Origin: Kineosporia mesophila
Lineage (GTDB): Bacteria; Actinomycetota; Actinomycetes; Actinomycetales; Kineosporiaceae
Length of the DNA: 64,000 nt
Direction: 5' to 3'
Assembly (NCBI RefSeq): GCF_021129235.1
Contig: NZ_JAJOMA010000004.1
Coordinates: forward strand, 1-64,000
Shown: piece after piece, positions 25,284 through 50,325 of the stretch
Position numbering within the stretch: the first letter of the stretch is position 1
How the letters are laid out: each line of letters begins with the position of its first letter
The notes under the pieces: model-generated
The model's database searches: none
The model's input: only the letters and a program-made list of their open reading frames with translations
Told to the model about the DNA's origin: nothing
Position numbers and translations under genes: made by a program

Positions 25284-25287
25284 CTTT

Positions 25288-25332
25288 GTAGCGGGGACAG
25301 GATTTGAACCTGCGACCTCTGGGTTATGAGCC
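25288..25332 (-). repeat. attL: 3' fragment of tRNA-fMet
   Basis: Identical to the T-arm, variable, anticodon 3' part and acceptor end of the intact tRNA at 49995. The identity stops in the anticodon stem, where the 5' half is replaced by element sequence, so it cannot be a functional tRNA. Confidence 0.92.
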
Positions 25333-29136: not shown

Positions 29137-32100
29137 CTAGAGCCTTGGACGCGGTCCACGGTATCGCTGGGGGTCTTGCGGTGGTCGTAGACGGGGGGCC
29201 GCCGATGGTGTGGGGGCGGGCTGGGGCGCCGGTGCTGGCGTGGGGTTCGGGCGCGTATATCGGGTGCGGTTGACGCGGGGCGTCGTAGCCCGCCTGGCCC
29301 GCTGGTCGGCGCCCGCGCTGGGCACCTTCGCCCTGCCGCTGGTGGGGTCGCTGAGGTGCCCGCGTTCGCGCAGGACCTGGTGCAACTGCTGGACGTGGGC
29401 GGGGTGCGTGACGATGGCGTCCAGGTCGGAACCGGCGACGCCAGCCGTGCCGGCTGCCTGGGCTGGGGGTTCGGGACCGAGCCATCGGTGGCCGAGTTTC
29501 GCGGTGATGTCGGCACTGATGGCGAGGCGTTCGGTGTCCGGCAACGCGCGGTACAGGTCGATCGCGATCTGGCGTTCACGGTGCACGGGGTACACCTGGC
29601 CGGAGTGTGACCCAGGGCCGGTGGCCGTTGTCCTGGTGCGTGCTGGTGTCCTGTTCGGGGAGCGCTGCGGCTGGTTGTCAGACGACTGGCTGATCTCGTA
29701 GGCGGTGTGAAGGGCGTGGGCGGCCTGCCAGTAGCCCTGGTGGTGCGGGCTACTCGCATCGATGTAGGGACCCAGGGGTCGCCGGGAGTTCGGGGCGTCG
29801 TTCTCGCTGGTCTGGTCGGTGATCTGGTGCTGGTCGCGGTGCGCGGCTACGACGGCGACCTGCTGCATCCACGCGGCCTGCTGGCGGGGGTCGGTGGGTG
29901 GGATGCCCAAACTCTGGAGCCAGACCGGGCGGGTGGTGATCGCGTGCTGGGCGAGCTGCTCGACGCGCTGGCGCAGTTGTTCGGCGGCGGCGCGGGTGTA
30001 GTCGTCGTGCCGGGCAATGGCTGGAGTCCAGGGCGGCAGACCGGCCTCGACGGGGGCGAGCTGGGTACTGGTGGTGGCGTACCGGCGCACGTGGGTGACC
30101 AGATCGGCCAGGGAGACGGCAGCTGCCTCATCTCCGTCTTGTGTCTTGCGGGGCAGGATCCGGGTGATGTCAGTGCCTGCGTTCTCCTGGGCCTTGAGCA
30201 GCCAGGCCAGCCGCGACCACTGGTCGCTGAGCGTCGTGGTGCTCGTGCTGGATCGCTCCGTCCCCGGGGCCGTTGGGGCCTCGGTGCGAGTACCCGCCGT
30301 AGCGCCTGACTTCCCGGCGTTCGTGCTGGCATGGCTGCTGGTCTGAGAGATGGCGGGGTGGGTGTCGGCGTACTCGCCCAGGCGCCAGGCCAGGACGCTG
30401 CTGATGCTGCGGGCCCCGGCGAGGTCACGCCGGTTTCCGACCTCGCGGAGGACGTTGGCGGGGTCGTGGCCGGCCTCGTCCAGGCGCCTCAGGGCGGCCT
30501 GGACGGCGGGCCAGGCCGCTTCGCGGGTGGTCTGCTCGGCCAGCCGCGAGCCAATGACCGGGCCCAGCAGACCGCTGTAAACGTTGCGACTGGCGACCGT
30601 TTCGGTGCGCCGGATCGGCGCGTACGGGCCCGGATCAGCGGGGGTTTTCAGGGCGGTCGCCGGGTCGAGCGGTTCGTGTGTGGTGGTGATGTCGGCGATC
30701 AGGCGTGCGTATCGGGCGGCGTCCTGGCGGGTGGGCGCAGCCATCGGCGCGGGCGCGTGATGCTGGCTGGTCAGGGTCGTGATGCGCTCGGCCAGGACCT
30801 GCGCGCGGGTCGGTGGGGCCACATCTAGGCTCATCTGACTGAACTGAACCGACGACGTTGTCGACGGCGCCGACGGTACTGACGGGGTTCCGGTAGCGGT
30901 CAGGGGGCGGCCGGGGACGGTGAGTGTGTCCGTCCAGGTGGCGTCGTCCGTGACGACTTTCAGCAGGTCCTTGGGGTTCCATCCGGTGGTTGCCGCGTGG
31001 TGCAGGGCGCGGGCGACGTCGGGCCAGGCCGGGTCGTTCAACAGTGGTGTGGCCGCGCTCTTGCCGAGGAGCTGGGTGAGGTGGCGGCGGTGCTCGGTGG
31101 CGTTCAACCGTTCGACCGCGTGGACGTAGCGGGGCATGAGCGTCGCTAGGGACTCGCTCTCGGTTTGGGCGTCGCGGATGGTCTGGGTCGCGGACACCTG
31201 AGCGCCCTCAGCGGCCAGCACCGTGTGCAGGACGGCCAGGGCTGCGCGGGCGTGGGGGTCGTGGGCGGCGGCGTCGGCGCGGTGGTCTTCATCGACCGAC
31301 AGCAGATGATGCGTGGCCACATACAGGTAGCTGGCTTTCGCGGCGCGGGTCAGGGCGACGTACAGGTGCTCCCGCAACATGCCCGCGCTGATCAGGGCGT
31401 GCATGGTGGCGACGGTGGAGCCCTGGGTGCGGTGCACCGTGGACGCGTACAGCAGCTCCACGTGCTCACGCACGTACGCGCTCGGTAGGCGGATCTGGCC
31501 GCCGTGTTCCAGGTGGCGGACCTGGAGTGAGCCGTCCTCGTGCCGGGACTCCACACGCCAGGCATCGCCGTTACGCACGAAATCCTTGCCCTGGTGGGTG
31601 GACAGGCGCCGGGAGTTGTGGCGGGTGACGATCCAGTCCCCGACCCCGGCACTGTTGCCGTCGTGCAGGGTGATGCCGTCGGTTTCGACCTGCCCGGCCT
31701 TCACGCGGTCGGCACGGGCCCGGGCGGACAGGGCGGTGACGTCGGCGTTGGACGCGGCCGCCATTACCGAGATCTTCCCGGCTTGCACATCGGCCCACCA
31801 GCCACTGTAGGCGGCATCGGTCATCGCCTCGACCGAGCCACCACGGATACGGTCCCGGCTGGCGTAGAAGTCCAGTCCGGCGGTGTCGCCGGTGCGGATC
31901 TTGAGGGTCGCGGCGGCTTCGTCCGAGTCGCGGAAACGGTGCAGCGTGGACAGTTCCACCGCCCCAGCCTCGGCGGCGATCAGCCGCAGAGCACCGCCGG
32001 ACTCGACGGCGGACAACTGCCGGTAGTCGCCCAGCAGCCGCACGGACGCGCCGTGGTGGGCGGCGATGGCGGTGATCCGGTCCAGGGTGAACGTGCCCGC

Positions 32101-34320
32101 CATCCCGGCCTCGTCTACCAGGATCACGTCCCCCCGCCGCACGGCCAGCGGACGCAGATTCGGGGGCAGAGCGACGGCGTGGCCGGTCTCGAAGGCGTGG
32201 CTGTGGTGGCCGGACAGGTGCTCGTGCAGGAACTTGTGGACGTTCTCGGCCGGGACGCCCAGGTCCTTGGCCAGTACCGCGGCCGAGGCCGCGGAGGTGG
32301 CCAGCGGGATGAGGCGTCGCTGCTGCGCTTGCAGGGTGTGCAGGTAGGCCACCATCGTCGTGGTCTTGCCCGTCCCGGCCGCCCCGATGCCCACCGTCAG
32401 GAGACGTTCATCGGTGGCGAACGCGCTCACCATCGCCCGCTGACCGGCATCCAGGGGGCGACCGTGGCCGGCCTCGAACCCGTCCAGCGTCGCACTTATC
32501 CACGCGGCCGAGGGCACGCCGATCGGCTGCGTCACGTTGGTCGCCGATGCCTTGGCGTGAGCCTGGTCGGGGGTGGTGGCAGCGCTCACGAGACGCTGTT
32601 CAGCGTCCAGCACGGCCTGGCTGGTGTACCGGTCGGCGGCGTGCTGGACGAACACCGAGACGCCGTCCGAACGCCTCAGACTCTCCGGCTCGGCCAGCAG
32701 AGTGGGGGCCTCGATGCTGATGCTCAAGCCCCGGGACATGGCCTGCTTGACCACCGCCGCTACGGCGGCCTGGTGCTCCTCCAGGCCAGCAATGGCGACA
32801 GGCGCCTGAGCCACCGCAGGGCCACTGTCTGCGCCGGTGGAGTTGCCCGCCGTGGTGCTGTCGGTGGGGTGGATATTGGTGATCGGTTGGTGCCGGGCGG
32901 CGGTGACCTTGACCAGGCGCTCGGCCTCGGCTCGCAGGTTCCATACCGTCCAGGTGGAGCGTTTCTCGGCCACGTTCGCCACAACCTGCGCAGCCAGCAC
33001 CTGCACCGAAACCGCAGGCACAGAACGCACACCGGGCTGACTGGCGGCGGGATTGCGGTGTGTGGGGTCGGGGACGGCGGCCATGACCTGGCTGATGACT
33101 TCGCGGCCGTGGCGCGTGAAGGCTTGTTCCCTCCACATGGCGCGCATCGTAGGTAGGGACCGGGCAGCGTGCTTGGCCTGGCGGGTATCCAGGTTCGCGC
33201 GGCGGGCCAGCTTGTGCGCCATGGACGCGGACGGTTCGTGCCCGTGCTCGGCCCGGTAGGCACTGGTCAGCTCCTCATACCGCGCAGTGAGAGCGCTGCG
33301 GCGGCGAGAGAAATCCTTGATCAGTGCCGGGCTGATCCCGGCGATCTCGTACACCGGCTGCTTACCCCGGCTCATCTCCCGCGCCTCGAACCGCACACCC
33401 GTCCGGGCGCTCAGGGCGATCTGGAAGGCCGTGTTGTAGTGCTCGGAGGCGGCCACGGTGAGGCGGAACAGGGCGCGCCCGTCCAGGGTCCGCCAGATCC
33501 CGTCGGCGCCTTGGACCTTGTTCGAGATCGCGACGTGCGTGTGGGGATTGGGGTCACCGTCGCGGCTGTCGTAGTGGTCGAAGGAGACGCCGATCAAGCC
33601 CTTGGTCTCGATCTGCGCCACACCGTTCGTGCCGGTCCGGGTGAAAGCCGCGTGCTCCTCCAGCATCGCCAACGTGGCGTCCTTGGCCTCATGGTGGGCG
33701 GCCATCACCGCGTCACGCACCCACGCCCGCTCATCCAGAGCCCACAACAAGGCAGCGGACTTCACCGGCGCGAACACCAGGTCGTACCCGGCCACGGACG
33801 TGTGCTGGCGGCGGGCCTCCTGTGCCCGGATCCGTTTCTCCTCGGCCGGCTCAGGGACGCGGCCGGTCTCCTCGATCAGCGCCGCCACCCGCTCCTGCAC
33901 GCGCTGCTCGAACGGTTCCAGCGCTTGATACGTCGCGAACGGACGCCCAAGCGTCACCGAGCGCAGGGCCTCGCCGTTGACCTTCGCCACCTGCGCCGCG
34001 CTCATGCCCGCGGTGATGTGCGCCTGCTGGTAGGCGGCCATTCTCGCCTCGGCGTCCGGGTGCAGGCCCATCCCGAACAGCGCCCGCATCTGCTCCGCCT
34101 CAACCACCCGGGCGGGCTGGCCTTTCAGCGGGTTCAGGTCCAGGAGGTAGCGTCCTCGCCCGATCCAGACGCCCGGCGGGTTGCCCTCGGCCGTGTAATA
34201 CGCGGTCGCATCCTGGCCCGGCTGGGGCATGAGCTTTTGGTCGGCGTGGGCGGTGGCGATGTCGCGCATCAGGTACAGGTAACCGTCCCCAGCGGTCAGT
34301 TTCGCGATCGTCATCACCAT
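29137..34320 (-). CDS. MobF-family conjugative relaxase with helicase domain
   Basis: About 1727 residues. The start MTIAKLTAGDGYLYLMRD matches TrwC/TraI relaxases, and the HUH metal motif DPNPHTHVAISN lies near residue 260. A RecD/TraI-type helicase follows with Walker A GIGAAGTGKTTT near residue 648 and Walker B VILVDEAGMAG. The last ~500 residues are Ala/Thr/Arg-rich and less conserved. It should nick one strand at oriT and unwind it for transfer. ATG 34320 has GAGGG upstream; ATG 34314 is also possible. It is the only transfer gene seen in the element. The origin of transfer probably lies in the gene-poor stretch just upstream. Confidence 0.92.
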   Translation of the reverse strand: MVMTIAKLTAGDGYLYLMRDIATAHADQKLMPQPGQDATAYYTAEGNPPGVWIGRGRYLLDLNPLKGQPARVVEAEQMRALFGMGLHPDAEARMAAYQQAHITAGMSAAQVAKVNGEALRSVTLGRPFATYQALEPFEQRVQERVAALIEETGRVPEPAEEKRIRAQEARRQHTSVAGYDLVFAPVKSAALLWALDERAWVRDAVMAAHHEAKDATLAMLEEHAAFTRTGTNGVAQIETKGLIGVSFDHYDSRDGDPNPHTHVAISNKVQGADGIWRTLDGRALFRLTVAASEHYNTAFQIALSARTGVRFEAREMSRGKQPVYEIAGISPALIKDFSRRRSALTARYEELTSAYRAEHGHEPSASMAHKLARRANLDTRQAKHAARSLPTMRAMWREQAFTRHGREVISQVMAAVPDPTHRNPAASQPGVRSVPAVSVQVLAAQVVANVAEKRSTWTVWNLRAEAERLVKVTAARHQPITNIHPTDSTTAGNSTGADSGPAVAQAPVAIAGLEEHQAAVAAVVKQAMSRGLSISIEAPTLLAEPESLRRSDGVSVFVQHAADRYTSQAVLDAEQRLVSAATTPDQAHAKASATNVTQPIGVPSAAWISATLDGFEAGHGRPLDAGQRAMVSAFATDERLLTVGIGAAGTGKTTTMVAYLHTLQAQQRRLIPLATSAASAAVLAKDLGVPAENVHKFLHEHLSGHHSHAFETGHAVALPPNLRPLAVRRGDVILVDEAGMAGTFTLDRITAIAAHHGASVRLLGDYRQLSAVESGGALRLIAAEAGAVELSTLHRFRDSDEAAATLKIRTGDTAGLDFYASRDRIRGGSVEAMTDAAYSGWWADVQAGKISVMAAASNADVTALSARARADRVKAGQVETDGITLHDGNSAGVGDWIVTRHNSRRLSTHQGKDFVRNGDAWRVESRHEDGSLQVRHLEHGGQIRLPSAYVREHVELLYASTVHRTQGSTVATMHALISAGMLREHLYVALTRAAKASYLYVATHHLLSVDEDHRADAAAHDPHARAALAVLHTVLAAEGAQVSATQTIRDAQTESESLATLMPRYVHAVERLNATEHRRHLTQLLGKSAATPLLNDPAWPDVARALHHAATTGWNPKDLLKVVTDDATWTDTLTVPGRPLTATGTPSVPSAPSTTSSVQFSQMSLDVAPPTRAQVLAERITTLTSQHHAPAPMAAPTRQDAARYARLIADITTTHEPLDPATALKTPADPGPYAPIRRTETVASRNVYSGLLGPVIGSRLAEQTTREAAWPAVQAALRRLDEAGHDPANVLREVGNRRDLAGARSISSVLAWRLGEYADTHPAISQTSSHASTNAGKSGATAGTRTEAPTAPGTERSSTSTTTLSDQWSRLAWLLKAQENAGTDITRILPRKTQDGDEAAAVSLADLVTHVRRYATTSTQLAPVEAGLPPWTPAIARHDDYTRAAAEQLRQRVEQLAQHAITTRPVWLQSLGIPPTDPRQQAAWMQQVAVVAAHRDQHQITDQTSENDAPNSRRPLGPYIDASSPHHQGYWQAAHALHTAYEISQSSDNQPQRSPNRTPARTRTTATGPGSHSGQVYPVHRERQIAIDLYRALPDTERLAISADITAKLGHRWLGPEPPAQAAGTAGVAGSDLDAIVTHPAHVQQLHQVLRERGHLSDPTSGRAKVPSAGADQRARRATTPRVNRTRYTRPNPTPAPAPQPAPTPSAAPRLRPPQDPQRYRGPRPRL

Positions 34321-34937
34321 GACAGCCGACCCTCGGGCGGGCGGTGAGCACACGCGCGTGCGCTACGGCCTGCACCACCACTCATCGCGTCCATACTCCT
34401 TCGTGAATCCTCTTTCTGGCCTGGTCGTGTGCTCTGGTGGTGGGCCGTGCGCACAGCGGTCAGGCCCCCGGCCTGACCGTTACAGACTGTCCGTGGGAGC
34501 CGCCGAGGCTCGCGGGTCCAGTGCGGCCCGCAGGGTCGTCCGCAGGACCCGAAGGGCACTTGAGGCGCGAGAAGCGGCCCCACAAGCTGCACGGCCCACC
34601 ACCAGAGCACCCACCAAAACCTCTACCTCCAGGGCCATCTCTTGCCATCGGTGAACCCTGATGTACGACAACGAACTTCACCGAACTGAGACGGTTGCCT
34701 GCGGGCTTGGATGGCACTAAAATTGCTTATTCGCAGGTTGTTTCATGGAACTAGGGTCGCTAACTCCGCCGCTTCATGCAAGAGGTGTCTGGCTTTTCCC
34801 GCTCTTGTATAGGCGGATTGGATCTTTCTACCGCTGCCGAGGGCGGGTTCGCGGACGGGGCCCCAAGGACGGCGTACGGACGGCCCCTCTGCTGACAAGC
34901 TGATCCAGGACATCAGCGGGCGACGAGGGAGATCGCG
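34321..34937. other. Gene-poor stretch upstream of the relaxase gene; possible oriT
   Basis: About 617 bases without a convincing gene; short open frames here have no start signals or family. Relaxase genes commonly lie beside their origin of transfer, so oriT is most likely here. I found no unambiguous nick-site motif. Confidence 0.3.
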
Positions 34938-35105: not shown

Positions 35106-35239
35106 CCTTCAGCGGTAGGTGGCGTGGTTCTCGCAGCAATAGAGCATGCATCCCTGCGGGTTAAGAGGATTCCTGGCCAGCGAATCGGTCAGACGGGTGC
35201 TCCCTGTAACGCCCGGTGCTCATGCGGGGAAGCAAGGAC

Positions 35240-37527: not shown

Positions 37528-38709
37528 TCACGCGGACTGATTGCCTGATGGCGATGTCGGGTTCCCTGGCCACGATGGTTCGTCCGGCGGCTTCGGGAGC
37601 GACGGACGCACCCTGCTCGGAGGCGAGATGCGCAGGGATCGGGATGCTGGAACCGGATCCCGATCAGGTTCCGGTGGGGGTGAGGAAGGCGTGGTCACGG
37701 TAGCCCGGGCCAAGTGCCATCGTGTTGCTTGTGTTGCGCTCATACGACCGATCTGAGCTCGGCGTCGGCCGACGAGGGCGGCGACGCCCGAAATCAGATT
37801 CGTCCGGGTGCTCCAGCCGAGTGTCTGGGCGGCTCTCGTGGGGTCGAGCTGCATGCGCGGAATGTCGCCGGCCCGGACCTGGCTCGGACGGGTTTGGGTA
37901 CGTGGGACAAGGTTGACGACGAGCTGCTGCAGGGTCTGGATGCTGGTTTCGATGCCGCTACCGATATTGACCCGGCCGGCCGGAGTAGTGCTGGCTGCCG
38001 CGACAAATGCTGCGGTGACGTCGTCGATGTGGACGAAGTCGCGGGTCGCGGTGCCTGCACCGTTGATCCGGATCGCGTTCCCGGAGAGCGCTTCGGCGAC
38101 GAACCGGTCGATGACGGCGTGCTGGTTCCCGGCTCCGTAGACGTTCCCGAGGATCAAGGTGGTCACTTTGAGGCCACGCTCGACCGCGAACCAGTCGAGA
38201 TACTCCACAGCCGCGGCCTTGCTGAGGCCGTAGGGGCTCATGGGCGCCAGACGGGCTGTCTCCGGTACAGGAAGCCGTTCCGGGCGTCCATAAATGGCAC
38301 AGGTAGCCGCGAAGATCAGGTGCGCCCCAACCTCAGCGGTGGCTTCGGCCACGAGGAGGCTGCCGCGAAGGTTCACGTCGGCGTCGTGGACGGGATAGGC
38401 CACGGAAACCGGGACTGAGGCCTGGGCGGCCAGGTGCATGACCACCTCGGGCTGGTACTGCATCATCGTGGCTCGGACGCCGCTGGAGCGGATGTCCTGC
38501 CGAACGGTCTGGCGATGGTTGCGCCAAAGCCTGGGTTGGGGTCCTGAGTCGGCGATGTCGAGTCCGACGACCTCGGCTCCCGCGTCGTTGAGTCGCTGGA
38601 CGAGGTGGCGGCCGATGCCTCCGGAGGATCCGGTGACCAAGATGCGGCGGCCTTGCAGACTGCTCGCAGAGGGCAGCACCCAGGGTGCGTCCAACGGGCG
38701 GTCGTTCAT
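37528..38709 (-). CDS. NAD-dependent sugar epimerase/dehydratase (extended SDR)
   Basis: 393 residues. The nucleotide-binding turn is LVTGSSGGIGRHLV near residue 25, and the active-site Tyr-Lys pair is in SPYGLSKAAAVEY. GNVYGAGN and TRDFVHIDDV are typical of nucleotide-sugar 4-epimerases and dehydratases. The C-terminal 60 residues are a Pro/Ser/Arg-rich tail not part of the fold. It is the last of seven overlapping genes and would make or modify an NDP-sugar for the glycosyltransferases upstream. The sugar cannot be told from the sequence. Confidence 0.85.
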   Translation of the reverse strand: MNDRPLDAPWVLPSASSLQGRRILVTGSSGGIGRHLVQRLNDAGAEVVGLDIADSGPQPRLWRNHRQTVRQDIRSSGVRATMMQYQPEVVMHLAAQASVPVSVAYPVHDADVNLRGSLLVAEATAEVGAHLIFAATCAIYGRPERLPVPETARLAPMSPYGLSKAAAVEYLDWFAVERGLKVTTLILGNVYGAGNQHAVIDRFVAEALSGNAIRINGAGTATRDFVHIDDVTAAFVAAASTTPAGRVNIGSGIETSIQTLQQLVVNLVPRTQTRPSQVRAGDIPRMQLDPTRAAQTLGWSTRTNLISGVAALVGRRRAQIGRMSATQATRWHLARATVTTPSSPPPEPDRDPVPASRSLRISPPSRVRPSLPKPPDEPSWPGNPTSPSGNQSA

Positions 38710-39365
38710 CGGATACCTGCCAGGTGCGCGGTGTCGTTGTGGCAGATCAGAGCCCAGCGCTGTCCAGCGCCGGGGCGCAGCCAGGACACCGGCTGCTGGC
38801 TCCAGGTGGTGAGGGCGGACTGGTGAGCGGCGAAACCGATGGGCAGGGTGGCGGTGCTGTCCAGGCCGCAGAACAGATGGTGGGCTGCGGTAACGGTCTC
38901 GCCGTGCCCGACCAGCAGCACCCGCTGACCGCGGTGACGTCCCAGCACGTCGCGAAGAATCTGGTGGACGCGTTTCTGGTGGTGATACCAGGACTCAGCG
39001 CCGGCGGCCACGGGCCGGTCCGGGTGCAGGCTCGGAGCGGCACCGAACAGGGCGACGACCTCGTCCCACGGGGAGCCGTCGGCTGAGCCGTAGTCGGGTT
39101 CGCGTAGGTCGTCCATCACGGTGGGCGCCAGGCCGGTGGTGATGGCGATCGCGTCGGCTGTCTGCCGGGCTCGCAAGATCGGGCTGGTGTACAGGGCGGT
39201 GTAGGGCGCGTGGGCGTGTTCGATGCCCAGGCGCTGGGCGAGACGTTCGGCCTGCTGGTGGCCGGTGGGCGTCAGGCCCCGGCAGCGGTTCGGTCCTTCG
39301 ATGGTCTGGTCGATGTTGCACCAGGCCTGCCCGTGGCGGGCGATGGTCAGTTCCCCGTTCTGCAT
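38706..39365 (-). CDS. Histidine phosphatase (phosphoglycerate-mutase-like)
   Basis: 219 residues. The phosphohistidine motif RHG is in TIARHGQAW near residue 10 and the second catalytic His in LLVGHGETVTAAHH. ATG 39365 has a strong AGGAGA site 6 bases upstream, and overlaps the glycosyltransferase end by 19 bases; its stop overlaps the epimerase start by 4. In this operon it may dephosphorylate a sugar-phosphate intermediate. True mutase activity is less likely, as the flanking motifs differ. Confidence 0.85.
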   Translation of the reverse strand: MQNGELTIARHGQAWCNIDQTIEGPNRCRGLTPTGHQQAERLAQRLGIEHAHAPYTALYTSPILRARQTADAIAITTGLAPTVMDDLREPDYGSADGSPWDEVVALFGAAPSLHPDRPVAAGAESWYHHQKRVHQILRDVLGRHRGQRVLLVGHGETVTAAHHLFCGLDSTATLPIGFAAHQSALTTWSQQPVSWLRPGAGQRWALICHNDTAHLAGIR

Positions 39366-40507
39366 GACGTTCTCCTGACGATCTCTCGGTAGAAGGACAA
39401 GCACGAAGCTGCGTGGGCAGCAGCCGTGAACTGCGGCGACCGCGCCTCGGCGGCCTCACATAGACGGCTGCGGTGCTTGCTGTCGAGGGCCAGACGGTCG
39501 AGCGTTGCGGCCAAGGCCGTGGGGTTGCCGGGTGGCACGGCGGTACCGGCGTCCTGTATTAGCTCGCGCATGTTGGCCACATCGGTCGCGATGATGGGGC
39601 GCCCGGCGACAAGGTAGTCAGCGATGGCGCCGGAGCCCTGGAACGTTGCGTGGGGCTGGTACGGGAAGAGCCCTGCGTGGCTATCGGCCACAAGGGCGGC
39701 CCGGGACGGGCCGTCCAGATAGTGCGGCAGGACGACGAATTCGGCAGCGCGCCCCAGGTGAACGGCCGTCCCGACGGCTGCCCGCAGGTCGGCCCCAGCT
39801 TGAGCTGGGTCGTCCCAGAACGGGCCGGCCAGTACGACCCGCAGCTGGGATCGGGTGAGGTTCAGAGCTTTGATCAGACCGGAAATGTCTTTCCAAGGCG
39901 CGGCATATCCGCTCAGGGTCAGCTTTGTAACGCCGGGGCGAGAATCGTGCAGCGCGGCGTCCAGGTGCGGGTTGCTTGAGGGGTTGACGTCGTCGGGAAT
40001 GGTGGTGGGCAGCGGGATCGTGCGCGAGGGCACGTCGGTGGTGTCGGGCAGGTGCGTGCTGAGGATGCGACGTCCGTAGTCTCCGAAGTACACCAACGCG
40101 TCGGCCGTGGCGAACGTCTGGTCCACGGACGCCCTGAGTTGGGTATTCGGGCGATGCGTCGTGAACAAGGTGGGGTCGAGGGCGTGCACGTGGATCACCA
40201 CGGGTACGTCACCGGTCCGGTGCTGGTGGTGCCAGATCATCGGCAGGAGCTGCTCGATCTCGAGGTTGCCGAAGTGCAGGCTGACCACGTCGTACGCGCT
40301 GGGCTCGGCCTGGATGGCGAGGTGGCTAGCGTCGGCCAGCATGCGCTCAACCGTGAGGAACTGCCCTTCCTTCTCGTCGTAGGGCACCCCGGCTGATCCG
40401 AGCCGATCGACGTGAACTCCCAGGCGGCGCAGGTGGATGGCCAGGACGTCCAGGTAGGGCGGGAGACTTCCTTCAGCGTGCTCGGGGCCGACCAGCAACA
40501 CCTTCAC
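39347..40507 (-). CDS. Glycosyltransferase, GT-B fold
   Basis: 386 residues from GTG 40507, which overlaps the stop of the preceding gene. The N-terminal lobe starts VKVLLVGPEHAEGSLPPYL; the C-terminal lobe has LTLSGYAAPWKDISGLIKAL and GSGAIADYLVAGRPIIATDV, the usual donor-binding region of GT4-like enzymes. It should transfer a sugar from an NDP-sugar donor to a small-molecule or lipid acceptor, in the cytoplasm, since no signal sequence is visible. Confidence 0.8.
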   Translation of the reverse strand: MKVLLVGPEHAEGSLPPYLDVLAIHLRRLGVHVDRLGSAGVPYDEKEGQFLTVERMLADASHLAIQAEPSAYDVVSLHFGNLEIEQLLPMIWHHQHRTGDVPVVIHVHALDPTLFTTHRPNTQLRASVDQTFATADALVYFGDYGRRILSTHLPDTTDVPSRTIPLPTTIPDDVNPSSNPHLDAALHDSRPGVTKLTLSGYAAPWKDISGLIKALNLTRSQLRVVLAGPFWDDPAQAGADLRAAVGTAVHLGRAAEFVVLPHYLDGPSRAALVADSHAGLFPYQPHATFQGSGAIADYLVAGRPIIATDVANMRELIQDAGTAVPPGNPTALAATLDRLALDSKHRSRLCEAAEARSPQFTAAAHAASCLSFYREIVRRTSCRTGN

Positions 40508-41646
40508 CCGCTCACCGCCGGGCTGAGCAAGTCCTGGTAGGCCCGGATCGTGGCGGCGGCGTTGTGCTCCCACCGGAAGGTGGAGGGCAGGGCGCCCTGC
40601 AGAGTCGGGCGCCGTCCGAGCAACTCCAGCAGGTCGCCTTCGTCCCGCCACCGGTAACCGGTGCTGGCGTGGGTCACGAGCTCGGAGCCCGCGGCCAGGT
40701 CCGCCGGGATCAGGGCCGGGGTGCCGCAGGCCAGGGCCTCGGCGATAGCCAGGCCGTAGCCCTCCCAGCGGGAGGTGCTCAGCAGATAATCAGCGCGTCG
40801 GTACACCGCGGGCAGGTCGTCGGTGCCGAAGTCCTGGCACACCAGCACGTTTCTCGGGAGATCGACCGGGTACTGCACGATCCCGTGCCCCAGAACGATC
40901 AGCAGTCGCACCGACTCCCCGAACCCCGTGGCCAGGCGCTGCAGACGGTCGAATCCCTTCATCTGCGTGAGCTTTCCGACCCACACCAGACGTAGCAGAC
41001 CGTCGTCAGCGCTGTTGTTGAAGTACTCGCTCCAGGCCGGGGCCGAGGTAATGAGCTCGGGCAGGGACTGGCGTGCGATGACCGCTCCGCTCCGGTCGAG
41101 CTCGACGGCCCAGCCGGACTCCGGGCGTGTGAGCCCGCTAGCAGTGAAACGGTCCCTATCGACGCCGTTTGCAATGACAGCCGGCCGGTCGATGCCGTAG
41201 GCAGCGGCCAGGTCATCGGCCGCGAACCGGCTGACAGCCACTACCTGATCGGCCCGATGGCACAGCTGCTGCTCCTCGGCCGCCAGCTCGACGGCGTTCA
41301 TCGTCGCCGCAGACAGGTCCCCGCGCACCAGCACCGGGGCCCGGGTGCTGCGCGGGCGTTCCAGATAGGTGAGCAGTTCGGCTTCCCAGGTCGAGCACTC
41401 CACGACGTCCGCGGCGACCTGATCGAGAGCCCTAGCGGCGGCTACCCGGTGCGCTGCCAGGTTGTTGGTGCGCGGCAGCGTCACCACCCTCACGCCCTCA
41501 CGCTGCACCGGGTACGGGGTCTCCTGGGTGATCAGGATGACATCGAGCCCAGCCTTCACGAGCTCCTCGGCCAGGGCCAGGTAGAGCGTGCAGATCCCGC
41601 CGCGCACGACCTGGTGAAGATCCCGGTGGACCAGTGCAACCCTCAC
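40504..41646 (-). CDS. Glycosyltransferase family 4 protein
   Basis: 380-residue GT4 enzyme. The N-terminal lobe begins MRVALVHRDLHQVVRGGICT, the middle has VAVSRFAADDLAAAYG and VIANGVDRDRF, and the C-terminal lobe carries LSTSRWEGYGLAIAEALACG with the conserved ExxxxxxxE donor-binding pattern. The GTG start overlaps the APH-like gene's stop by 4 bases. It likely adds a second sugar to the product of this operon. Confidence 0.88.
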   Translation of the reverse strand: MRVALVHRDLHQVVRGGICTLYLALAEELVKAGLDVILITQETPYPVQREGVRVVTLPRTNNLAAHRVAAARALDQVAADVVECSTWEAELLTYLERPRSTRAPVLVRGDLSAATMNAVELAAEEQQLCHRADQVVAVSRFAADDLAAAYGIDRPAVIANGVDRDRFTASGLTRPESGWAVELDRSGAVIARQSLPELITSAPAWSEYFNNSADDGLLRLVWVGKLTQMKGFDRLQRLATGFGESVRLLIVLGHGIVQYPVDLPRNVLVCQDFGTDDLPAVYRRADYLLSTSRWEGYGLAIAEALACGTPALIPADLAAGSELVTHASTGYRWRDEGDLLELLGRRPTLQGALPSTFRWEHNAAATIRAYQDLLSPAVSG

Positions 41647-42551
41647 GACAGCTCCCCGGCCAGATCATCGGCCAGGGCACCAACGCGGCCCCGCACATCC
41701 GCCCAGGTCCGCGTCAAGTACGCCAGCCGCTCGGCACGCACCGGCCCGGCGGGAATCTCTCGGTGGGTACGCAGCTCTCGGGTGCATATCGTCGACACGT
41801 TGCACCAGAACCCTGCCTGCGCGATCGGCTCGTCTCCCACCAGCTGCTCGATGCGCTGACGCACAGTCGGGATGCGGCCGAGCAGGAGCCACAGCACGGC
41901 GGCATCCAGGCCCGGCAGGAAGAGCCCGGCGAACTCCCAGTCCAGGACCCCACTGAGCCCCGCGCCCGGCGCGCTGAGCACGTTGCCGGGCAGCAGATCG
42001 CCGTGGGCCAGACGCATGGGACCGGCGGCCTTGGCCAGGACGTTCAGCGCCGCCTGGTCGCGTTCGTTCAGGATCTGATAAGCCCGGTAGCGGGTGAACC
42101 GGTCCGGGTAGTTCCACACGACAGGAAAGGCACCGGCAGGCGCTGACCACGTTCGCAGGTCGTCGGCAGCCTCTAGCAGTGCTCCGACCTGTTCGACGCT
42201 GAGGTCGTCCGGGTAGCGATCGTGAGAGATCGGTGTGCCGAGCAGCCGGGTCATCACCAGGACCGCGGCATCGGGGTCTGCGGTCACCAGGCGGGGTGCG
42301 GGCACCGGCGGGGGGTGCTCCTCGAAGACTCGGTAAGCGGTGATCTCCTGCGCGAACTTGGCCTGCCAGAAAGGACTATCGTCCAGGAGCACCTTGACCA
42401 CGACAGGCTGGTCCCCGGTTTCCGCAGCCAAAAGCGCGGCCTTGCCATTGCGGTGGATGAGCAGGTCCGGCCCGTCAGCCAAGACCAGGTCACATTCGAG
42501 GTCGGTGGTAGCGGAGCGGACTCGCTCGAGCCAGGTGCCGGGCACGTTCAC
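41643..42551 (-). CDS. Aminoglycoside-phosphotransferase-fold small-molecule kinase
   Basis: 302 residues. The catalytic loop is LAHGDLLPGNVL (HxDxxxxN with Gly) near residue 180-190, followed by the metal-binding VLDWEFAG. The N-terminal ATP lobe contains VVVKVLLDDSPFW. The family phosphorylates sugars, choline, antibiotics or similar hydroxyls. Placed between two glycosyltransferase genes with 4-base overlaps, it may activate a sugar, phosphorylate the product or give self-protection against it. No resistance subclass can be assigned. Confidence 0.85.
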   Translation of the reverse strand: MNVPGTWLERVRSATTDLECDLVLADGPDLLIHRNGKAALLAAETGDQPVVVKVLLDDSPFWQAKFAQEITAYRVFEEHPPPVPAPRLVTADPDAAVLVMTRLLGTPISHDRYPDDLSVEQVGALLEAADDLRTWSAPAGAFPVVWNYPDRFTRYRAYQILNERDQAALNVLAKAAGPMRLAHGDLLPGNVLSAPGAGLSGVLDWEFAGLFLPGLDAAVLWLLLGRIPTVRQRIEQLVGDEPIAQAGFWCNVSTICTRELRTHREIPAGPVRAERLAYLTRTWADVRGRVGALADDLAGELS

Positions 42552-43513
42552 CAGATGACCTCCTCATGGTGGAGGGCGGGGCTGGTGGCCGGGTCGGCTA
42601 CCAGGGCCAGCTGCTTTTTGGTCTCCTCACGAGGCAGGTCCCCGTTGATGGAGGCGGCGATCAGCCGCAGCGTCCGCTCGTAGTAGTACATGTCCGTCGG
42701 CAGGCCGGCACTCAAGCGGGCCTCCAGGACCTCGTACATCCGAAAGAACATCTCCCGGTGCACGCCAGCCACACTCGTGGGGTCCACGGGCCAGCGCTGG
42801 TGCAGGAGACGCTGTCCGTGTTCGAACTTTCGTGACCCGGCGATCGTCCTGGCGGCGTCGCCGGTCATCGACGTCGCCGCGGCGATGCGGTGATAGACGG
42901 TGGTCGGCGTGTTGAGGTGTTTCATGTGCCAGCCGTGCCCGTTGACCAGGCCGAGCCACAGCGCGTAGTCCTCCTGCAGGACGTTGCCCGGGTTGAGGGC
43001 CGCGTCGTGCGGGTCGAACCGGCGGGTGACGACGGAGATCACCGGTGTCAGGTTGGTGACGGCCAGAAGATCCGGGTTGAACGCGTGATCGAAGCGGTGC
43101 CGGGACGGCACTACCTGCCCAGGTTCGGCCGGGGCGTGCGCCACCAGGCATGTTGTGTAGACCGCGTCGACGCCCTCCTCACCAAGCCCTCTCAGAGCAG
43201 TGCGCAGGTGATGAGGCAACCAGACGTCATCATCATCCAGGAACGCCACGTACTCACCCTCGGTCGCGGCGATGCCGACCTTCCGGGCCGCAGATAGACC
43301 CAGATTCACGCTCAGGTTGATCAGGCGGATCGTCGCCGACGTTCGCTGCCTGGCCTCCTGCACGACAGCGCTCACGTCGCTGCCGCCGTCGTTGATCAGG
43401 ACGATCTCGTGACCGTCCACGTCCTGGGCGCCGGCGCTGTCCAACGCGCGGCGTAGGCCTTCCGGCCGGTTGTACGTCGTGATAACCGTACTCACCGTTG
43501 CCTGCGCACTCAT
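42548..43513 (-). CDS. Glycosyltransferase family 2 protein
   Basis: 321 residues. The GT-A start TVSTVITTYNRPEGLRRALD and the metal-binding aspartates in VAFLDDDDVWLPHHL near residue 95 are clear. No membrane helix is seen, so it acts on a soluble or loosely bound acceptor. Fourth-codon overlaps with both neighbours tie it to the seven-gene operon. Confidence 0.9.
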   Translation of the reverse strand: MSAQATVSTVITTYNRPEGLRRALDSAGAQDVDGHEIVLINDGGSDVSAVVQEARQRTSATIRLINLSVNLGLSAARKVGIAATEGEYVAFLDDDDVWLPHHLRTALRGLGEEGVDAVYTTCLVAHAPAEPGQVVPSRHRFDHAFNPDLLAVTNLTPVISVVTRRFDPHDAALNPGNVLQEDYALWLGLVNGHGWHMKHLNTPTTVYHRIAAATSMTGDAARTIAGSRKFEHGQRLLHQRWPVDPTSVAGVHREMFFRMYEVLEARLSAGLPTDMYYYERTLRLIAASINGDLPREETKKQLALVADPATSPALHHEEVIW

Positions 43514-44544
43514 GAAGCCTTCTCCCTCAGGAAGTGGAGCAGCGGTGCGGGGTCGCCCGCGTGCTGATACCGCATGCTGGAGGCCGTGGCGGCCAGCTGG
43601 CCGGTCAGCCTGACGCCGTCTCTGGCGAAAGTCATTGCGTCACGGTGACTGCTGGCAATGAATCGCTCGCTGAGCCGACCCTCCGTCAGCCAGTCCAGCC
43701 GCAGATGATCCGCCAGTGCCCCGGCCGAGCTGACGGCACCAACTTCGCTGACCACAGGTGCTTCACCATCAGCGGCCGACAGGTAGGACGGAAAGACCAG
43801 AGCAATTCGCAAGTTCTTCAGTGGCAGCAGGACGGGGTTCGCTTGCTGAAATCTGGAAAAGGTGAAGTAGACAGCGTCATCCGCCCGATAACGCTCTGAG
43901 GGCGGAATCCGCCGCCAATGATCGACATCGAAGTCGTTGAAGTCCCAAGGTTCTGGAAGTCGGTCCCACAGATCCACCACTGTCCCGGCCTTGACCGGGA
44001 TTGGGGTCGGCAAAGACGTTGCTAAAAGACCTCGCTCACGATCGCGCAGCAGAATAAGGTGGTCGTTCGACAACCATCGCCATCCGTGATCGAGGACGCA
44101 CCGCAGGGCCAAGGTCGTCTTCCCACCGCGCTTATCCGCGGCGAACACGATCACCTGCTCATCGTTGTAGACCGCCGAGGCATGAACCATTGTGTACCCG
44201 GCCGTCTCGCACGACTCCAGGAACACCTCACGCACCAGCTTCCGGGTTGTTACGGCCAGGCTGAAGGCAGACTCCGACCGTAGTCTCACTGACCGATGAC
44301 GACGGTCCAGATCAACCCCGACACCGAATCCAGTGTGAATCGTAGCCCCGTCCGCAGGCGCCGCCTCGGCGGTGAACGTCCACGACGGGGCCTGGTCAAC
44401 GGTGGCGAGCGGATAGAACTCAGCCACCGTCTCCAGCACCAGCTTCACCCGAGAACGAACGGCGACGACGGCATCGCCCAAGCGCACCCGCACCGTGACC
44501 TCATCCGCGAACCTCATGCCACCGCCACCTTGCGCATCAAGCAT
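43510..44544 (-). CDS. HprK-like kinase-fold protein
   Basis: 344 residues from ATG 44544, which has GGAGGAG 9 bases upstream; the open frame runs further but into the intergenic promoter region. Near residue 130-150 are YTMVHASAVYNDEQVIVFAA and the P-loop ADKRGGKTTLA, then WRWLSNDHLILL, the layout of HPr-kinase-related proteins. Such proteins occur in biosynthetic clusters (for example with lasso-peptide or other RiPP genes) and phosphorylate Ser or a small molecule. No HPr protein or precursor peptide gene is seen nearby. It is the first gene of the operon. Confidence 0.78.
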   Translation of the reverse strand: MLDAQGGGGMRFADEVTVRVRLGDAVVAVRSRVKLVLETVAEFYPLATVDQAPSWTFTAEAAPADGATIHTGFGVGVDLDRRHRSVRLRSESAFSLAVTTRKLVREVFLESCETAGYTMVHASAVYNDEQVIVFAADKRGGKTTLALRCVLDHGWRWLSNDHLILLRDRERGLLATSLPTPIPVKAGTVVDLWDRLPEPWDFNDFDVDHWRRIPPSERYRADDAVYFTFSRFQQANPVLLPLKNLRIALVFPSYLSAADGEAPVVSEVGAVSSAGALADHLRLDWLTEGRLSERFIASSHRDAMTFARDGVRLTGQLAATASSMRYQHAGDPAPLLHFLREKAS

Positions 44545-44811
44545 CGAACGTGCTCCTCCCCGTGTGTCCAACCCTCGTGTCAGGACTCGCGTCAAGCCGT
44601 TCACGACTTCGCTTACGGACCTCGCCACAACCAAATAACCGATCAGGCCCCCCGTGCGCAGCAGATCTCTGCCGTGAGACGCGAAAGCTTCAACTGTGCA
44701 GGCATTGACGCGGTACCGATCGAGCTGAACTGCCCAGTTCGCCGGTAGAGACAAGTCAATGCCAAGAGCTGCCCGGGGAGCTAGAGTTGAAAGCGCGGTA
44801 GGGCGTTTATC

Positions 44812-44823
44812 CGGTTTAAACCG
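44812..44823. promoter_or_regulatory. 12-bp palindrome touching the regulator start
   Basis: CGGTTTAAACCG, a perfect palindrome ending at the base before ATG 44824. Being between the divergent operon and the XRE/TPR gene, it may be an autoregulatory operator. Confidence 0.45.
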
Positions 44824-46197
44824 ATGGAGTTCTTCGTGGGCACCACGCCAGCTCAGCGTTCCCAGAACCAGCTCCTGCGCCAGTACCTGCGCGAGCTGGA
44901 TATGACCTACGATTCCCTCGCCCGCGCCGTCTCCAATGTCGCGGCCGAGAATGGTGAAGTGTTGCGCACCAACAAGTCCGCTGTGGCTCACTGGATCGCA
45001 GGTACCGAACCCGAGGACCGGACCATCCTTTACATCGTTGAGGCCCTCTCACGCCGCGCCGGGCGAACGATTTCGCCGCGACGGCTTGGCTTTCGAGACG
45101 TTGCACAACTTCTCCTACCGGTTCAGCATCCTGGGCAGAGCGCGGCAGTGCTGTCCCGTATGGATCTGGAACGTCCGGGTGTCCTGGCCGCAGCCGTCTA
45201 CACGGTCACCGCAGCACAGGTACCGCTGACCTACGATCCAGAGCCCGTCTCACGCCTCCTGCGGGCAAGTTCCGGATGCGCACGCATTGGCAGCCAGGAC
45301 GTGAGCGTCGTGCGAACCGTCACCCAGGCCTTCGCATCCGCAGACGAGATTCTCGGCGGAGGGCATGGATTGTCCACCGTCGCGACCTATCTCGCCGATA
45401 CTGCGGCCCCGATGCTGAGCGGTCGCTTCGCCACCGAGAAGGTCCGCTGCGAGGCATTCGCCGCAGCCTCCGAGCTGGCCTGGCTGCTGGGCTGGAAACA
45501 CCATGACCTTGGGCACGAAGGCGCGGCCCAGCAGTACTACCTCCTTGGCTACCAGCTCGCCATGGAAGCTGATCCACAAGCACACGCTGCCTGGATGATG
45601 CGCGCCATCGCCCACCAGGCCCTGAGCCTGAACCATCCCCAGCACGGACTTGTCATTCTCCAGAAGGCTCTCCAGCAGGCCCGAGGCAGCCTTGACGGCT
45701 CCACCGAGGCTCTCCTGCACATCACGCAGGCCAGAGCCCACGCCGCACTACAAGAACGCACCTTGGCAGCCCGCGCCCTCCTGGCTGCCGAGGACGCCCT
45801 CCGTCGTCCTGCCGAGCCCCAGCCAAGCTACTCGCGGCTGATGGGGCCGCCCCAGGCCGCTGTGGACTCGCACACCGCCAGGACTCTCACCGAGATCGGA
45901 GATCACGCCGGTGCGGCGCATCGTCACCGAGCAGCCTTCGCCTCCTGGGACCTGCGAATGTACCCGCGTGTGCACCTTCTGACGCACATGGATCTCGGCG
46001 ACAGCCTCGCCGCCCAGGCCCACGCCGACGAAGCCATCAACGCCTGGAATCAGGCAGTTGACCTGGCCGAAGGCCTGGACTCCGGGCGCAGCCGATCGGC
46101 CTTCGAGTCAATCCGCAGCACGCTCAGCATCTACCGCCGCAGGCGGGTTCCGGGCGCAGCTGGGCTCGCTCAGCGGGTCCACGACCTCGCATCTTGA
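44824..46197 (+). CDS. XRE-type helix-turn-helix regulator with TPR domain
   Basis: 457 residues. The N-terminal ~75 residues form a lambda-repressor-like fold (YLRELDMTYDSLARAVSN, then KSAVAHWIAG). The remainder is alpha-helical repeats, with several TPR-like helices such as LHITQARAHAALQERTLAAR. Such regulators often sense a peptide or small ligand through the repeats. It is divergent from the seven-gene operon and followed by a NUDIX gene, so it is the likely regulator of both. A palindrome abuts its start, and a leaderless or near-leaderless transcript is possible. Confidence 0.8.
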   Translation: MEFFVGTTPAQRSQNQLLRQYLRELDMTYDSLARAVSNVAAENGEVLRTNKSAVAHWIAGTEPEDRTILYIVEALSRRAGRTISPRRLGFRDVAQLLLPVQHPGQSAAVLSRMDLERPGVLAAAVYTVTAAQVPLTYDPEPVSRLLRASSGCARIGSQDVSVVRTVTQAFASADEILGGGHGLSTVATYLADTAAPMLSGRFATEKVRCEAFAAASELAWLLGWKHHDLGHEGAAQQYYLLGYQLAMEADPQAHAAWMMRAIAHQALSLNHPQHGLVILQKALQQARGSLDGSTEALLHITQARAHAALQERTLAARALLAAEDALRRPAEPQPSYSRLMGPPQAAVDSHTARTLTEIGDHAGAAHRHRAAFASWDLRMYPRVHLLTHMDLGDSLAAQAHADEAINAWNQAVDLAEGLDSGRSRSAFESIRSTLSIYRRRRVPGAAGLAQRVHDLAS

Positions 46198-46211
46198 TTA
46201 GGATCATCCCC

Positions 46212-46688
46212 ATGACGGACACCGCACTGCCGGCGGCCATCGACTCACACACGCTCCTGGTCGCCGCGGTCATCGTCCACGACCAGGACAAAGAACAGGT
46301 ACTACTGCTGCAACGAGCCGCTGGGGCCAAGTTCGCCCCCCTGCACTGGGATCTGCCGGTCGGCAAGGCCGAAAAGGGCGAGGCCATTACGACAACGGCA
46401 GCCCGTGAACTGCATGAAGAAACCGGCTTGATGGTCAAAGCGGAAGACTTGCAGGTTGCTGGCATCATCCATGGAGCCTGGGGCGTCGAGGCACCCAATG
46501 GATTCTTGACCGTCGTCTTCGTGACCACGTGCTGGACCGGTGAGCCCATCAATGCGGAGCCGCATAAGCACAAGCAGGTCAGCTGGCATCCAACAACCAA
46601 CATCCCCACCGACTTCGTCTCCACCACCCGGGCGGCCCTCGGCAACTATGTAGACAGGAACGTCTCCGTATTCACCGAGGGCTTCTGA
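46212..46688 (+). CDS. NUDIX hydrolase
   Basis: 158 residues with a Nudix box visible as GKAEKGEAITTTAARELHEETGL (GxExxxxxAxRExxEExGx). The ATG at 46212 has AGGAT 8 bases upstream; the frame also opens at a TTG 18 bases earlier, overlapping the regulator's end. It hydrolyses a nucleoside-diphosphate-linked compound, perhaps an NDP-sugar or a damaged nucleotide. It follows the XRE/TPR regulator by 14 bases on the same strand and overlaps the DUF6082 gene end by 43 bases from the other strand. Confidence 0.88.
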   Translation: MTDTALPAAIDSHTLLVAAVIVHDQDKEQVLLLQRAAGAKFAPLHWDLPVGKAEKGEAITTTAARELHEETGLMVKAEDLQVAGIIHGAWGVEAPNGFLTVVFVTTCWTGEPINAEPHKHKQVSWHPTTNIPTDFVSTTRAALGNYVDRNVSVFTEGF

Positions 46689-49981: not shown

Positions 49982-49994
49982 TGCACTTTCACAG

Positions 49995-50068
49995 TAGCGG
50001 GGACAGGATTTGAACCTGCGACCTCTGGGTTATGAGCCCAGCGAGCTACCGAGCTGCTCCACCCCGCG
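49995..50068 (-). tRNA. Initiator tRNA-Met (CAU), restored by the element; contains attR
   Basis: 74 bases without encoded CCA. It starts CGCGGGGTGG, where C1 cannot pair normally at the acceptor end, and its anticodon stem ends in GGG/CCC around CUCAUAA, the marks of bacterial initiator tRNA. The last 45-base stretch is identical to attL. It therefore hosts the integration site and remains intact. Confidence 0.93.
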
Positions 50069-50147
50069 TCGGTAACTCAAGACTGTCACACCCGGGCCGA
50101 GAACGCGAATCGGTTGCTCCACCAGAACCGCTCCGCCAGGAACGAGT

Positions 50148-50181
50148 GAAGCCCGACCCTCAGGATCAAGGGCCGGGCTTC
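50148..50181. terminator. Hairpin after the second initiator tRNA gene
   Basis: 13-bp arms (GAAGCCCG...) with one mismatch, 14 bases beyond the tRNA 3' end on the minus strand. Confidence 0.65.
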
Positions 50182-50195
50182 GTTCACTGCGCTTG

Positions 50196-50269: not shown

Positions 50270-50325
50270 TCGGTAGTTTAAGAGTGTCACACCCCGTCCG
50301 GGAACGCGAATCCGCTGACCCGGAC

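What the first reader, a model, noticed from the sequence alone, without database searches (positions are those of the whole stretch)
37528..44544. Seven-gene overlapping operon: HprK-like kinase, three glycosyltransferases, APH-like kinase, phosphatase and epimerase
All genes overlap by 4-19 bases. Two different kinase folds, a phosphatase and three glycosyltransferases with a sugar epimerase imply a phosphorylated, multi-sugar small molecule or a modified peptide. No PKS, NRPS or obvious precursor is present. It is carried on a mobile element next to an XRE/TPR regulator and a NUDIX hydrolase.
Basis: inference. Interest (0 to 1): 0.74.

Follow-up and report, generated by a model that had tools for sequence, protein, structure and literature searches.

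The report
Mobile phospho-glycoside biosynthesis operon, product unknown
An actinobacterium carries, on a piece of mobile DNA, a compact nine-gene unit that looks built to make an unknown sugar-decorated, phosphorylated compound; a relative keeps the same nine genes together elsewhere in its genome, so they seem to work as a unit, but what they make is not shown.

Summary
Confirmed: seven minus-strand genes, 37528-44544, overlapping by 4, 4, 4, 4, 19 and 4 bases, divergent from an NsdA-family TPR regulator that overlaps a NUDIX gene. They lie on a 24.7-kb element (integrase, TrwC relaxase) inserted at tRNA-Met: 45-47-bp repeats, and an empty site in a relative. All nine genes recur in the same order in a second genome (66-86% identity, dN/dS 0.12-0.29) in another context; a distant genome keeps a five-gene core (HprK-like, GT2, APH, GT4, GT4); two other records hold remnants. 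No exporter, polymerase, scaffold enzyme or conserved short ORF was seen. NsdA-family regulators on plasmids sit divergently beside enzyme genes in 10 of 13 loci read (3 lasso-peptide clusters). Best reading: a self-contained, horizontally moved biosynthetic operon that phosphorylates and glycosylates a small acceptor; the chemistry is inferred only. The HprK-like protein is below family cut-offs, and a genome holding the cluster has no HPr match, so it is not a classical HPr kinase. Peptide or lipid acceptors remain open. Some genes also occur apart (a lone HprK-like gene; APH with a GT4a fragment).

The parts
25286..25332 (.). left attachment repeat: 47-base copy of the tRNA-Met 3' part
   Evidence: exact repeat of 47 bases with 50193 and 45 bases with 49994 and 51901; empty site in G004
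25493..27001 (+). tyrosine integrase
   Evidence: Pfam Phage_integrase E=7e-5 plus central and SAM-like integrase domains, each below cut-off
29137..34353 (-). TrwC-type relaxase/helicase
   Evidence: Pfam TrwC E=7e-72, AAA_30 E=2e-51
37528..38709 (-). GalE-like NAD-dependent sugar-nucleotide epimerase
   Evidence: Pfam Epimerase E=1.4e-50; nearest solved structures are UDP-glucose 4-epimerases, E=1.4e-44
38706..39365 (-). histidine phosphatase (ATG start that gives the 19-base overlap)
   Evidence: Pfam His_Phos_1 E=4e-31; RHG motif
39347..40507 (-). GT4-like glycosyltransferase b, without an E-x7-E motif
   Evidence: Pfam Glyco_trans_1_4 E=3e-10; no E-x7-E; FQGSGAIADYL in 3 of 3 aligned
40504..41646 (-). 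GT4 glycosyltransferase a
   Evidence: Pfam Glyco_transf_4 E=1.4e-17; E-x7-E at residue 295
41643..42551 (-). APH-family kinase
   Evidence: Pfam APH E=9e-18; HGDLLPGN and VLDW motifs
42548..43513 (-). GT2 glycosyltransferase
   Evidence: Pfam Glycos_transf_2 E=1.7e-24; PglI structure E=2.5e-40 over residues 7-293
43510..44544 (-). HprK-related P-loop kinase-like protein, first gene of the operon
   Evidence: NCBIfam HprK_rel_A E=2.1e-8, below cut-off; GKT, HAS and SND invariant in 4 of 4 aligned (positions)
44545..44823 (.). divergent promoter region; GTTTA-N7-TAAAC at 44805-44821 is a candidate operator
   Evidence: 279-bp gap and motif; the block next to the regulator start is conserved with G002
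44824..46197 (+). NsdA-family TPR-like regulator
   Evidence: NCBIfam NF053720, 305.9 bits, cut-off 75
46194..46688 (+). NUDIX hydrolase, overlapping the regulator by 4 bases
   Evidence: Pfam NUDIX E=3e-20; NUDIX box
49994..50068 (-). tRNA-Met holding the right attachment repeat
   Evidence: ARAGORN, repeat

Best explanation
It is a complete, horizontally moved biosynthetic operon with its own divergent NsdA-family regulator. It makes a phosphorylated glycoside from a small acceptor taken from general metabolism. Proposed route (inferred, not shown): the HprK-like protein and the APH-family kinase phosphorylate hydroxyls of the acceptor or of an intermediate; GT2, GT4a and GT4b add up to three sugars in turn; the GalE-like enzyme supplies a C4-epimerised sugar nucleotide; the histidine phosphatase removes a protecting or activating phosphate at the end. 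The regulator represses the divergent promoters, and the NUDIX enzyme trims a nucleotide-diphosphate compound linked to the pathway. Shown here: the gene set, its joint inheritance, its purifying selection, its mobility, recognisable motifs and the regulator family. Inferred: every chemical step, the acceptor and the direction of regulation.
For: Nine-gene synteny in G002 with dN/dS 0.12-0.29 for all nine genes. Five-gene core in the same order in G084. Insertion of the 24.7-kb element at tRNA-Met against an empty site in G004, while no tRNA gene lies in the 60 kb scanned around the G002 copy: two different contexts. Kinase, phosphatase, epimerase, GT2, GT4a and NUDIX motifs present. No clear membrane segment by a crude hydropathy scan. 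NsdA-family regulators: in 10 of 13 plasmid loci read, the divergently adjacent genes include annotated enzymes, 3 of the 13 being lasso-peptide clusters (family membership). HprK-like plus APH plus NsdA recur in a different sugar-enzyme-type cluster on Streptomyces plasmids (47, 48, 101).
Against: No exporter or dedicated resistance gene, which many antibiotic clusters have (recalled). No scaffold-forming enzyme, so the acceptor is a guess. HisP and epimerase are not seen next to the G084 core (contig ends 370 bases on). A second HprK-like gene in G084 has none of the other genes downstream. One record has only APH plus a GT4a fragment. No control set of random regulators was read for the NsdA count, and the loci read are the closer relatives of the regulator. 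The first genes of the Streptomyces clusters L016 and L018 have no NCBIfam hit of their own; they are called HprK-like by similarity to the window protein only.
Confidence: 0.5

Rival explanations
1. The operon modifies a peptide (RiPP-like): the HprK-like or APH-like kinase phosphorylates Ser/Thr of a precursor encoded elsewhere, and the GTs glycosylate it.
For: HPr-kinase homologues phosphorylate lasso peptides (PMC8498205, passages). The APH-like CaoK phosphorylates the cacaoidin precursor (PMC9486802, passages), and the cacaoidin cluster has two GT2 and one GT4 (PMC8068269, passages). NsdA-family regulators sit beside lasso clusters. HprK_rel_A is the best NCBIfam hit, with a weaker one to ScmC (E=0.0015), and the GT2 has a below-cut-off hit to the mycofactocin glycosyltransferase MftF (E=2e-16).
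Against: No short ORF that looked conserved between window and G002, by eye, in the intergenic and flanking stretches listed. No lasso, lanthionine-synthetase or RRE family among the hits shown for the nine proteins (for the epimerase only the best 25 of 127 were shown). Precursors encoded elsewhere were not searched.
Confidence: 0.2
2. A cell-surface glycan or glycolipid modification operon: the GTs build a short oligosaccharide on a lipid or envelope acceptor.
For: GT2 resembles PglI, which acts on a lipid-linked glycan; GalE-like epimerase; several below-cut-off NCBIfam hits are to exopolysaccharide GTs.
Against: No initiating transferase, flippase, polymerase or ABC exporter among the nine proteins and no clear membrane segment in any. 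Two kinases and an NsdA-family regulator are not expected there (recalled).
Confidence: 0.13
3. A defence or resistance cassette of the mobile element, with the kinases and GTs inactivating an incoming antibiotic or marking a target.
For: Carried on an element; APH family; NUDIX has a PADLOC hit PDC-S07, E=1.2e-12.
Against: Eight of nine proteins have no PADLOC hit at E<=0.01. The APH has only marginal similarity to solved macrolide phosphotransferases (E=0.004). Seven tightly coupled enzymes are more than inactivation needs (inference).
Confidence: 0.08
4. Unrelated genes that hitch-hike together on the element.
For: The element carries other genes with no evident link; some of the nine also occur apart.
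Against: Same order, overlaps and purifying selection in G002 in another context; five-gene core in G084.
Confidence: 0.03

Closest known systems
Phosphorylated / phosphoglycosylated lasso-peptide clusters (paeninodin, pseudomycoidin)
   Same: HPr-kinase homologue as tailoring kinase, and sugar attachment (PMC8498205, passages); NsdA-family regulators stand beside other lasso clusters
   Different: No B1, B2 or C protein and no precursor seen; three GTs, an APH and a phosphatase here
Cacaoidin and other class V lanthipeptide clusters
   Same: APH-like kinase, GT2 and GT4 glycosyltransferases; cacaoidin has two XRE regulators and a regulator annotated as a TPR protein (PMC8068269 and PMC9486802, passages)
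   Different: No precursor and no HopA1-like hit among the nine proteins
Streptomyces plasmid clusters L016, L018, L023 (HprK-like, AP-endonuclease-type protein, APH, large Gfo/Idh/MocA protein)
   Same: Divergent NsdA-family regulator, HprK-like first gene, a phosphotransferase (48, 101); HprK-like profile match, probability 95.9% over 77 columns
   Different: No GTs annotated; further weak HprK hits and oxidoreductase/isomerase-type enzymes; the APHs of window and L016 do not align significantly (E=0.29)
HPr kinase/phosphorylase
   Same: P-loop GKT, a preceding histidine and a following aspartate invariant in 4 of 4 (their roles are recalled)
   Different: Below Pfam and NCBIfam cut-offs; G002 has no HPr match

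Membership tests
HPr kinase/phosphorylase (PF07475) | match to the family model above its cut-off | tested here: not met
   no hit for the window protein at E<=0.5; 1 of 4 aligned members at E=0.0058; own genome 0 matches at E<=0.001
HPr kinase/phosphorylase (PF07475) | HPr substrate protein in the genome | tested here: not met
   G002, which has the whole cluster, has 0 PTS-HPr matches at E<=0.001; but G000 has 1, inside an 825-aa open frame; both genomes are about 97% complete
HprK-related kinase A (TIGR04352) | score above cut-off 200 | tested here: not met
   33.6 bits, E=2.1e-8: relative, not member
NsdA-family TPR-like regulator (NF053720) | score above cut-off 75 | tested here: met
   305.9 bits over residues 17-451
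Lasso-peptide cluster | B1/B2 protease-RRE and C cyclase with a precursor | tested here: not met
   no such hit shown for the nine proteins; no conserved short ORF seen by eye; rest of the genome not searched
Class V lanthipeptide cluster | HopA1-like lyase and a precursor beside the APH-like kinase | tested here: not met
   no such hit shown for the nine proteins; precursor not seen
Cell-surface polysaccharide locus | initiating transferase, flippase/ABC exporter, polymerase | tested here: not met
   none among the nine; highest 19-residue hydropathy 1.82; G002 flanks read only as ORF lists
Integrative mobile element (ICE/IME-like) | integrase, attachment repeats, empty site, relaxase | tested here: met
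   the integrase domains are each below the Pfam cut-off
Integrative mobile element (ICE/IME-like) | own DNA translocase or mating-pair genes | tested here: inconclusive
   none among the ORFs scanned; 27001-29137 has almost no coding-like ORF
Phosphorylated glycoside pathway | isolated product | not testable with these tools
   needs expression and mass spectrometry

The most novel reading that the evidence does not exclude
The window and the Streptomyces plasmid loci belong to an undescribed class of small-molecule clusters, marked by an HprK-related kinase plus an APH-family kinase under a divergent NsdA-family regulator, in which HprK-type kinases phosphorylate free sugars or cyclitols rather than proteins, and the product is a phosphorylated oligosaccharide signal or antibiotic.
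Probability: 0.2. Interest if true: 0.72.

Novelty: new variant of a known kind. Interest (0 to 1): 0.42.

Why it matters
If right, it is a small, mobile, ready-made cassette for an unknown phosphorylated glycoside that cluster finders keyed on PKS, NRPS or RiPP genes may pass over (recalled, not tested). It would give HprK-related kinases a role outside carbon control and lasso peptides, and it would make NsdA-family regulators a practical beacon for overlooked clusters in actinobacteria.

Tried and rejected
AlphaFold of the HprK-like protein alone gave mean pLDDT 33: discarded, no fold search made. The genome-contig scan used only two short peptide patterns and gave 1 relative from 12 matching stretches, so rarity there means little. 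Viral contigs with the HprK-like protein: no match to its six patterns. Solved structures with the HprK-like profile: 0 hits at E<=1. A possible HD-type phosphohydrolase after GT4b in G084 (L009 6788-7084), guessed by eye, had no Pfam hit at E<=1: dropped. The better of two G084 phosphatase homologues (40%, on another contig) lies among genes that read, by eye, as nucleoside and acyl-CoA metabolism, with no other cluster gene found there. Promoter and terminator scans gave no more than shuffles. The second HprK-like gene in G002 (L007, weak HprK_rel_B hit) lies in a different gene set by eye. (order of G084) covered the same 35 genomes. Considered and rejected: classical HPr kinase; chance grouping. 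Literature: no paper in the library holds 'hpr kinase', 'glycosyltransferase', 'aminoglycoside phosphotransferase' and 'biosynthetic gene cluster' together, and none holds 'kineosporia', 'biosynthetic gene cluster' and 'saccharide'; that is all I can say on what is in print. PMC12224297 (passages) reports a 65.2% in-BGC ratio for XRE-like regulators in Streptomyces, mostly in terpene clusters, and has no mention of NsdA. The other papers were seen only as search listings.
Full report
WHAT WAS CHECKED. The window lies on contig C34 (364 kb) of a 7.8-Mb, 61-contig actinobacterial genome. The seven genes are present at the stated coordinates. Reading the minus strand: HprK-like 43510-44544, GT2 42548-43513, APH 41643-42551, GT4a 40504-41646, GT4b 39347-40507, histidine phosphatase 38706-39365, epimerase 37528-38709. 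Overlaps are 4, 4, 4, 4, 19 and 4 bases. Divergent from them, 279 bases away, is a TPR-like regulator (44824-46197) whose last 4 bases overlap a NUDIX gene (46194-46688).

FAMILIES. Pfam places six of the seven enzymes and the NUDIX protein above cut-off. The HprK-like protein has no Pfam hit; NCBIfam gives HprK-related kinase A at E=2.1e-8 and B at 7.8e-6, both far below their cut-offs. A histidine (HAS), a GKT P-loop and an SND motif are invariant in 4 of 4 aligned homologues; that they are catalytic is recalled from HPr kinase. The regulator is a clear NsdA-family member (305.9 bits, cut-off 75), though Pfam finds no domain in it. The GT2 resembles PglI (E=2.5e-40), and the epimerase resembles UDP-glucose 4-epimerases (E=1.4e-44). 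GT4a keeps an E-x7-E motif; GT4b has none, and FQGSGAIADYL stands in all three homologues. By a crude hydropathy scan no product has a clear membrane segment (highest 19-residue mean 1.82, in the APH). PADLOC hits only the NUDIX protein.

THE ELEMENT. A 47-base copy of the tRNA-Met 3' part stands at 25286, and tRNA-Met genes with the same 45-47 bases stand at 49994, 50195 and 51899. Between them are an integrase (its Pfam domain hits are each below cut-off) and a TrwC relaxase. GC falls from 0.70 outside to 0.64-0.67 inside. In G004, the relative with the most similar flanking gene (93%), the left flank (91% identical) and the right flank (93%) meet inside one tRNA-Met with nothing between. 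The insertion is therefore about 24.7 kb.

CONSERVATION. In G002, a genome of the same genus, all nine genes recur in the same order and orientation, at 66-86% protein identity. All nine pairs show purifying selection, dN/dS 0.12-0.29 (Nei-Gojobori). No tRNA gene lies in the 60 kb scanned around the G002 copy, so it is not in the same kind of site. In G084, which shares only the class, a contig holds HprK-like, GT2, APH, GT4a and GT4b in that order at 34-50% identity and ends 370 bases later with no phosphatase reading; beside it is a GntR-type regulator instead. A second G084 contig begins with an HprK-like gene, followed by other genes; its upstream side is cut off. An Actinobacteria MAG contig has an HprK C-terminal piece, APH and a GT4a fragment, and a Prauserella marina plasmid has APH and a GT4a fragment. 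The five-gene run HprK-GT2-APH-GT4a-GT4b is the core on this small sample.

DISTRIBUTION. HprK-like query: 2 of 6 genomes of the genus, 2 of 13 of the family, 2 of 394 of the class draw (itself and G084), 1 of 35 of G084's family, 2 of 396 of the order draw (itself and G002). GT4a query: 1 of 396 of the phylum draw (itself). The draws share genomes, and in the large draws only the best 4 or 5 candidates per genome were scored. On these terms it is rare and patchy.

REGULATOR CONTEXT. The regulator finds 114 plasmid records. I read 13 of them, taken from the best rows and the upper rows of a spread list, so the closer relatives (read); all 13 regulators are NsdA family above cut-off. By annotated names, in 10 of 13 the divergently adjacent genes include enzymes: 3 lasso-peptide clusters (L030, L040, L042), an asparagine-synthase-type locus (L029), two ACP/ketosynthase loci (L028, L043), a sugar-isomerase/Gfo-Idh locus (L039), two cupin/aldo-keto-reductase loci (L012, L026) and an epimerase locus (L013). 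L012/L026 and L028/L043 are two pairs of like loci. The other 3 (L027, L041, L044) are unclear. In 5 of 13 the next gene downstream is a glycosyltransferase, and in 2 of 13 a NUDIX gene on the opposite strand. No random-regulator control was read. NsdA itself represses antibiotic production in Streptomyces (PMC5567329, passages).

A WIDER GROUP. HprK-like searches of plasmids gave 9 Streptomyces records; I read 6, of which one (L025) has no annotation there. Of the 5 annotated loci, 3 (L016, L018, L023) have a divergent NsdA-family regulator and 2 (L017, L024) show none, with incomplete gene tables (family). L016, L018, L023 and L024 also carry an annotated phosphotransferase and a Gfo/Idh/MocA protein of about 907 aa. 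Other genes of L016, L018 and L023 have weak HprK-family hits; the first genes of L016 and L018 have no NCBIfam hit themselves and rest on similarity to the window protein and on a profile match of probability 95.9% over 77 columns. The two APHs compared do not align significantly. This suggests, without proving, a broader type of cluster built on an HprK-related kinase, an APH kinase and an NsdA-family regulator.

HOW IT PROBABLY WORKS. With no membrane protein, polymerase, PKS, NRPS or precursor seen, the simplest reading is that the operon decorates a soluble acceptor: two kinases phosphorylate it or an intermediate, three GTs add sugars, the epimerase supplies one sugar nucleotide, and the phosphatase removes a phosphate at a late step. 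The regulator would repress both promoters; a 17-base GTTTA-N7-TAAAC site directly before its start codon is identical in G002. Every chemical step is inferred. HPr as the substrate is unlikely, since G002 keeps the cluster and has no HPr match (completeness 97%); the window's own genome does have one HPr domain, in an 825-aa frame.

AGAINST THIS READING. No exporter or self-resistance gene; phosphatase and epimerase not seen in G084; a lone HprK-like gene in G084; and the peptide route has biochemical precedent for both kinase types: HPr-kinase homologues on lasso peptides (PMC8498205, passages) and the APH-like CaoK on the cacaoidin precursor (PMC9486802, passages). The GT2 also has a below-cut-off hit to the mycofactocin glycosyltransferase. 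No conserved short ORF was seen by eye in the intergenic and flanking stretches, but a precursor elsewhere in the genome was not sought.

VERDICT. Observation confirmed; interpretation partly supported. A real, mobile, selected unit, most likely biosynthetic, of unknown product, and a new variant of a known kind rather than a new kind. Interest 0.42.

Noticed in passing
L030, L040, L042 (Streptomyces plasmids): NsdA-family regulators are divergent from annotated lasso-peptide clusters; they may serve as beacons for such clusters.
   Followed up: partly
L016 9647-18441, L018, L023, L024: Streptomyces plasmid cluster with HprK-like proteins, AP-endonuclease-type protein, phosphotransferase and a Gfo/Idh/MocA protein of about 907 aa; three of these four have a divergent NsdA-family regulator.
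   Followed up: partly
window 35216-36369: ECF sigma factor gene overlapping a second small gene near the operon; the sigma factor has a relative (E=8e-17) near the HprK-like cluster of L023, beside a CU044_5270-family gene.
   Followed up: no
window 27001-29137: Two kilobases of the element with almost no coding-like ORF between integrase and relaxase; perhaps decayed transfer genes or a non-coding transfer region.
   Followed up: no
window 39347-40507: GT4b lacks the E-x7-E motif but has FQGSGAIADYL conserved in 3 of 3 homologues.
   Followed up: partly
window 44805-44821: GTTTA-N7-TAAAC inverted repeat two bases before the regulator start, kept in G002; candidate operator.
   Followed up: partly
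window 43510-44544: The HprK-like gene has a single TTA codon in both the window and G002 (in G002 GT4a and GT4b have one each as well), as in genes under bldA control (recalled).
   Followed up: no
window 49994-51975: Three tRNA-Met genes, identical over 75 bases, form a repeated attachment site; G004 and G005 also have three at the matching place.
   Followed up: no
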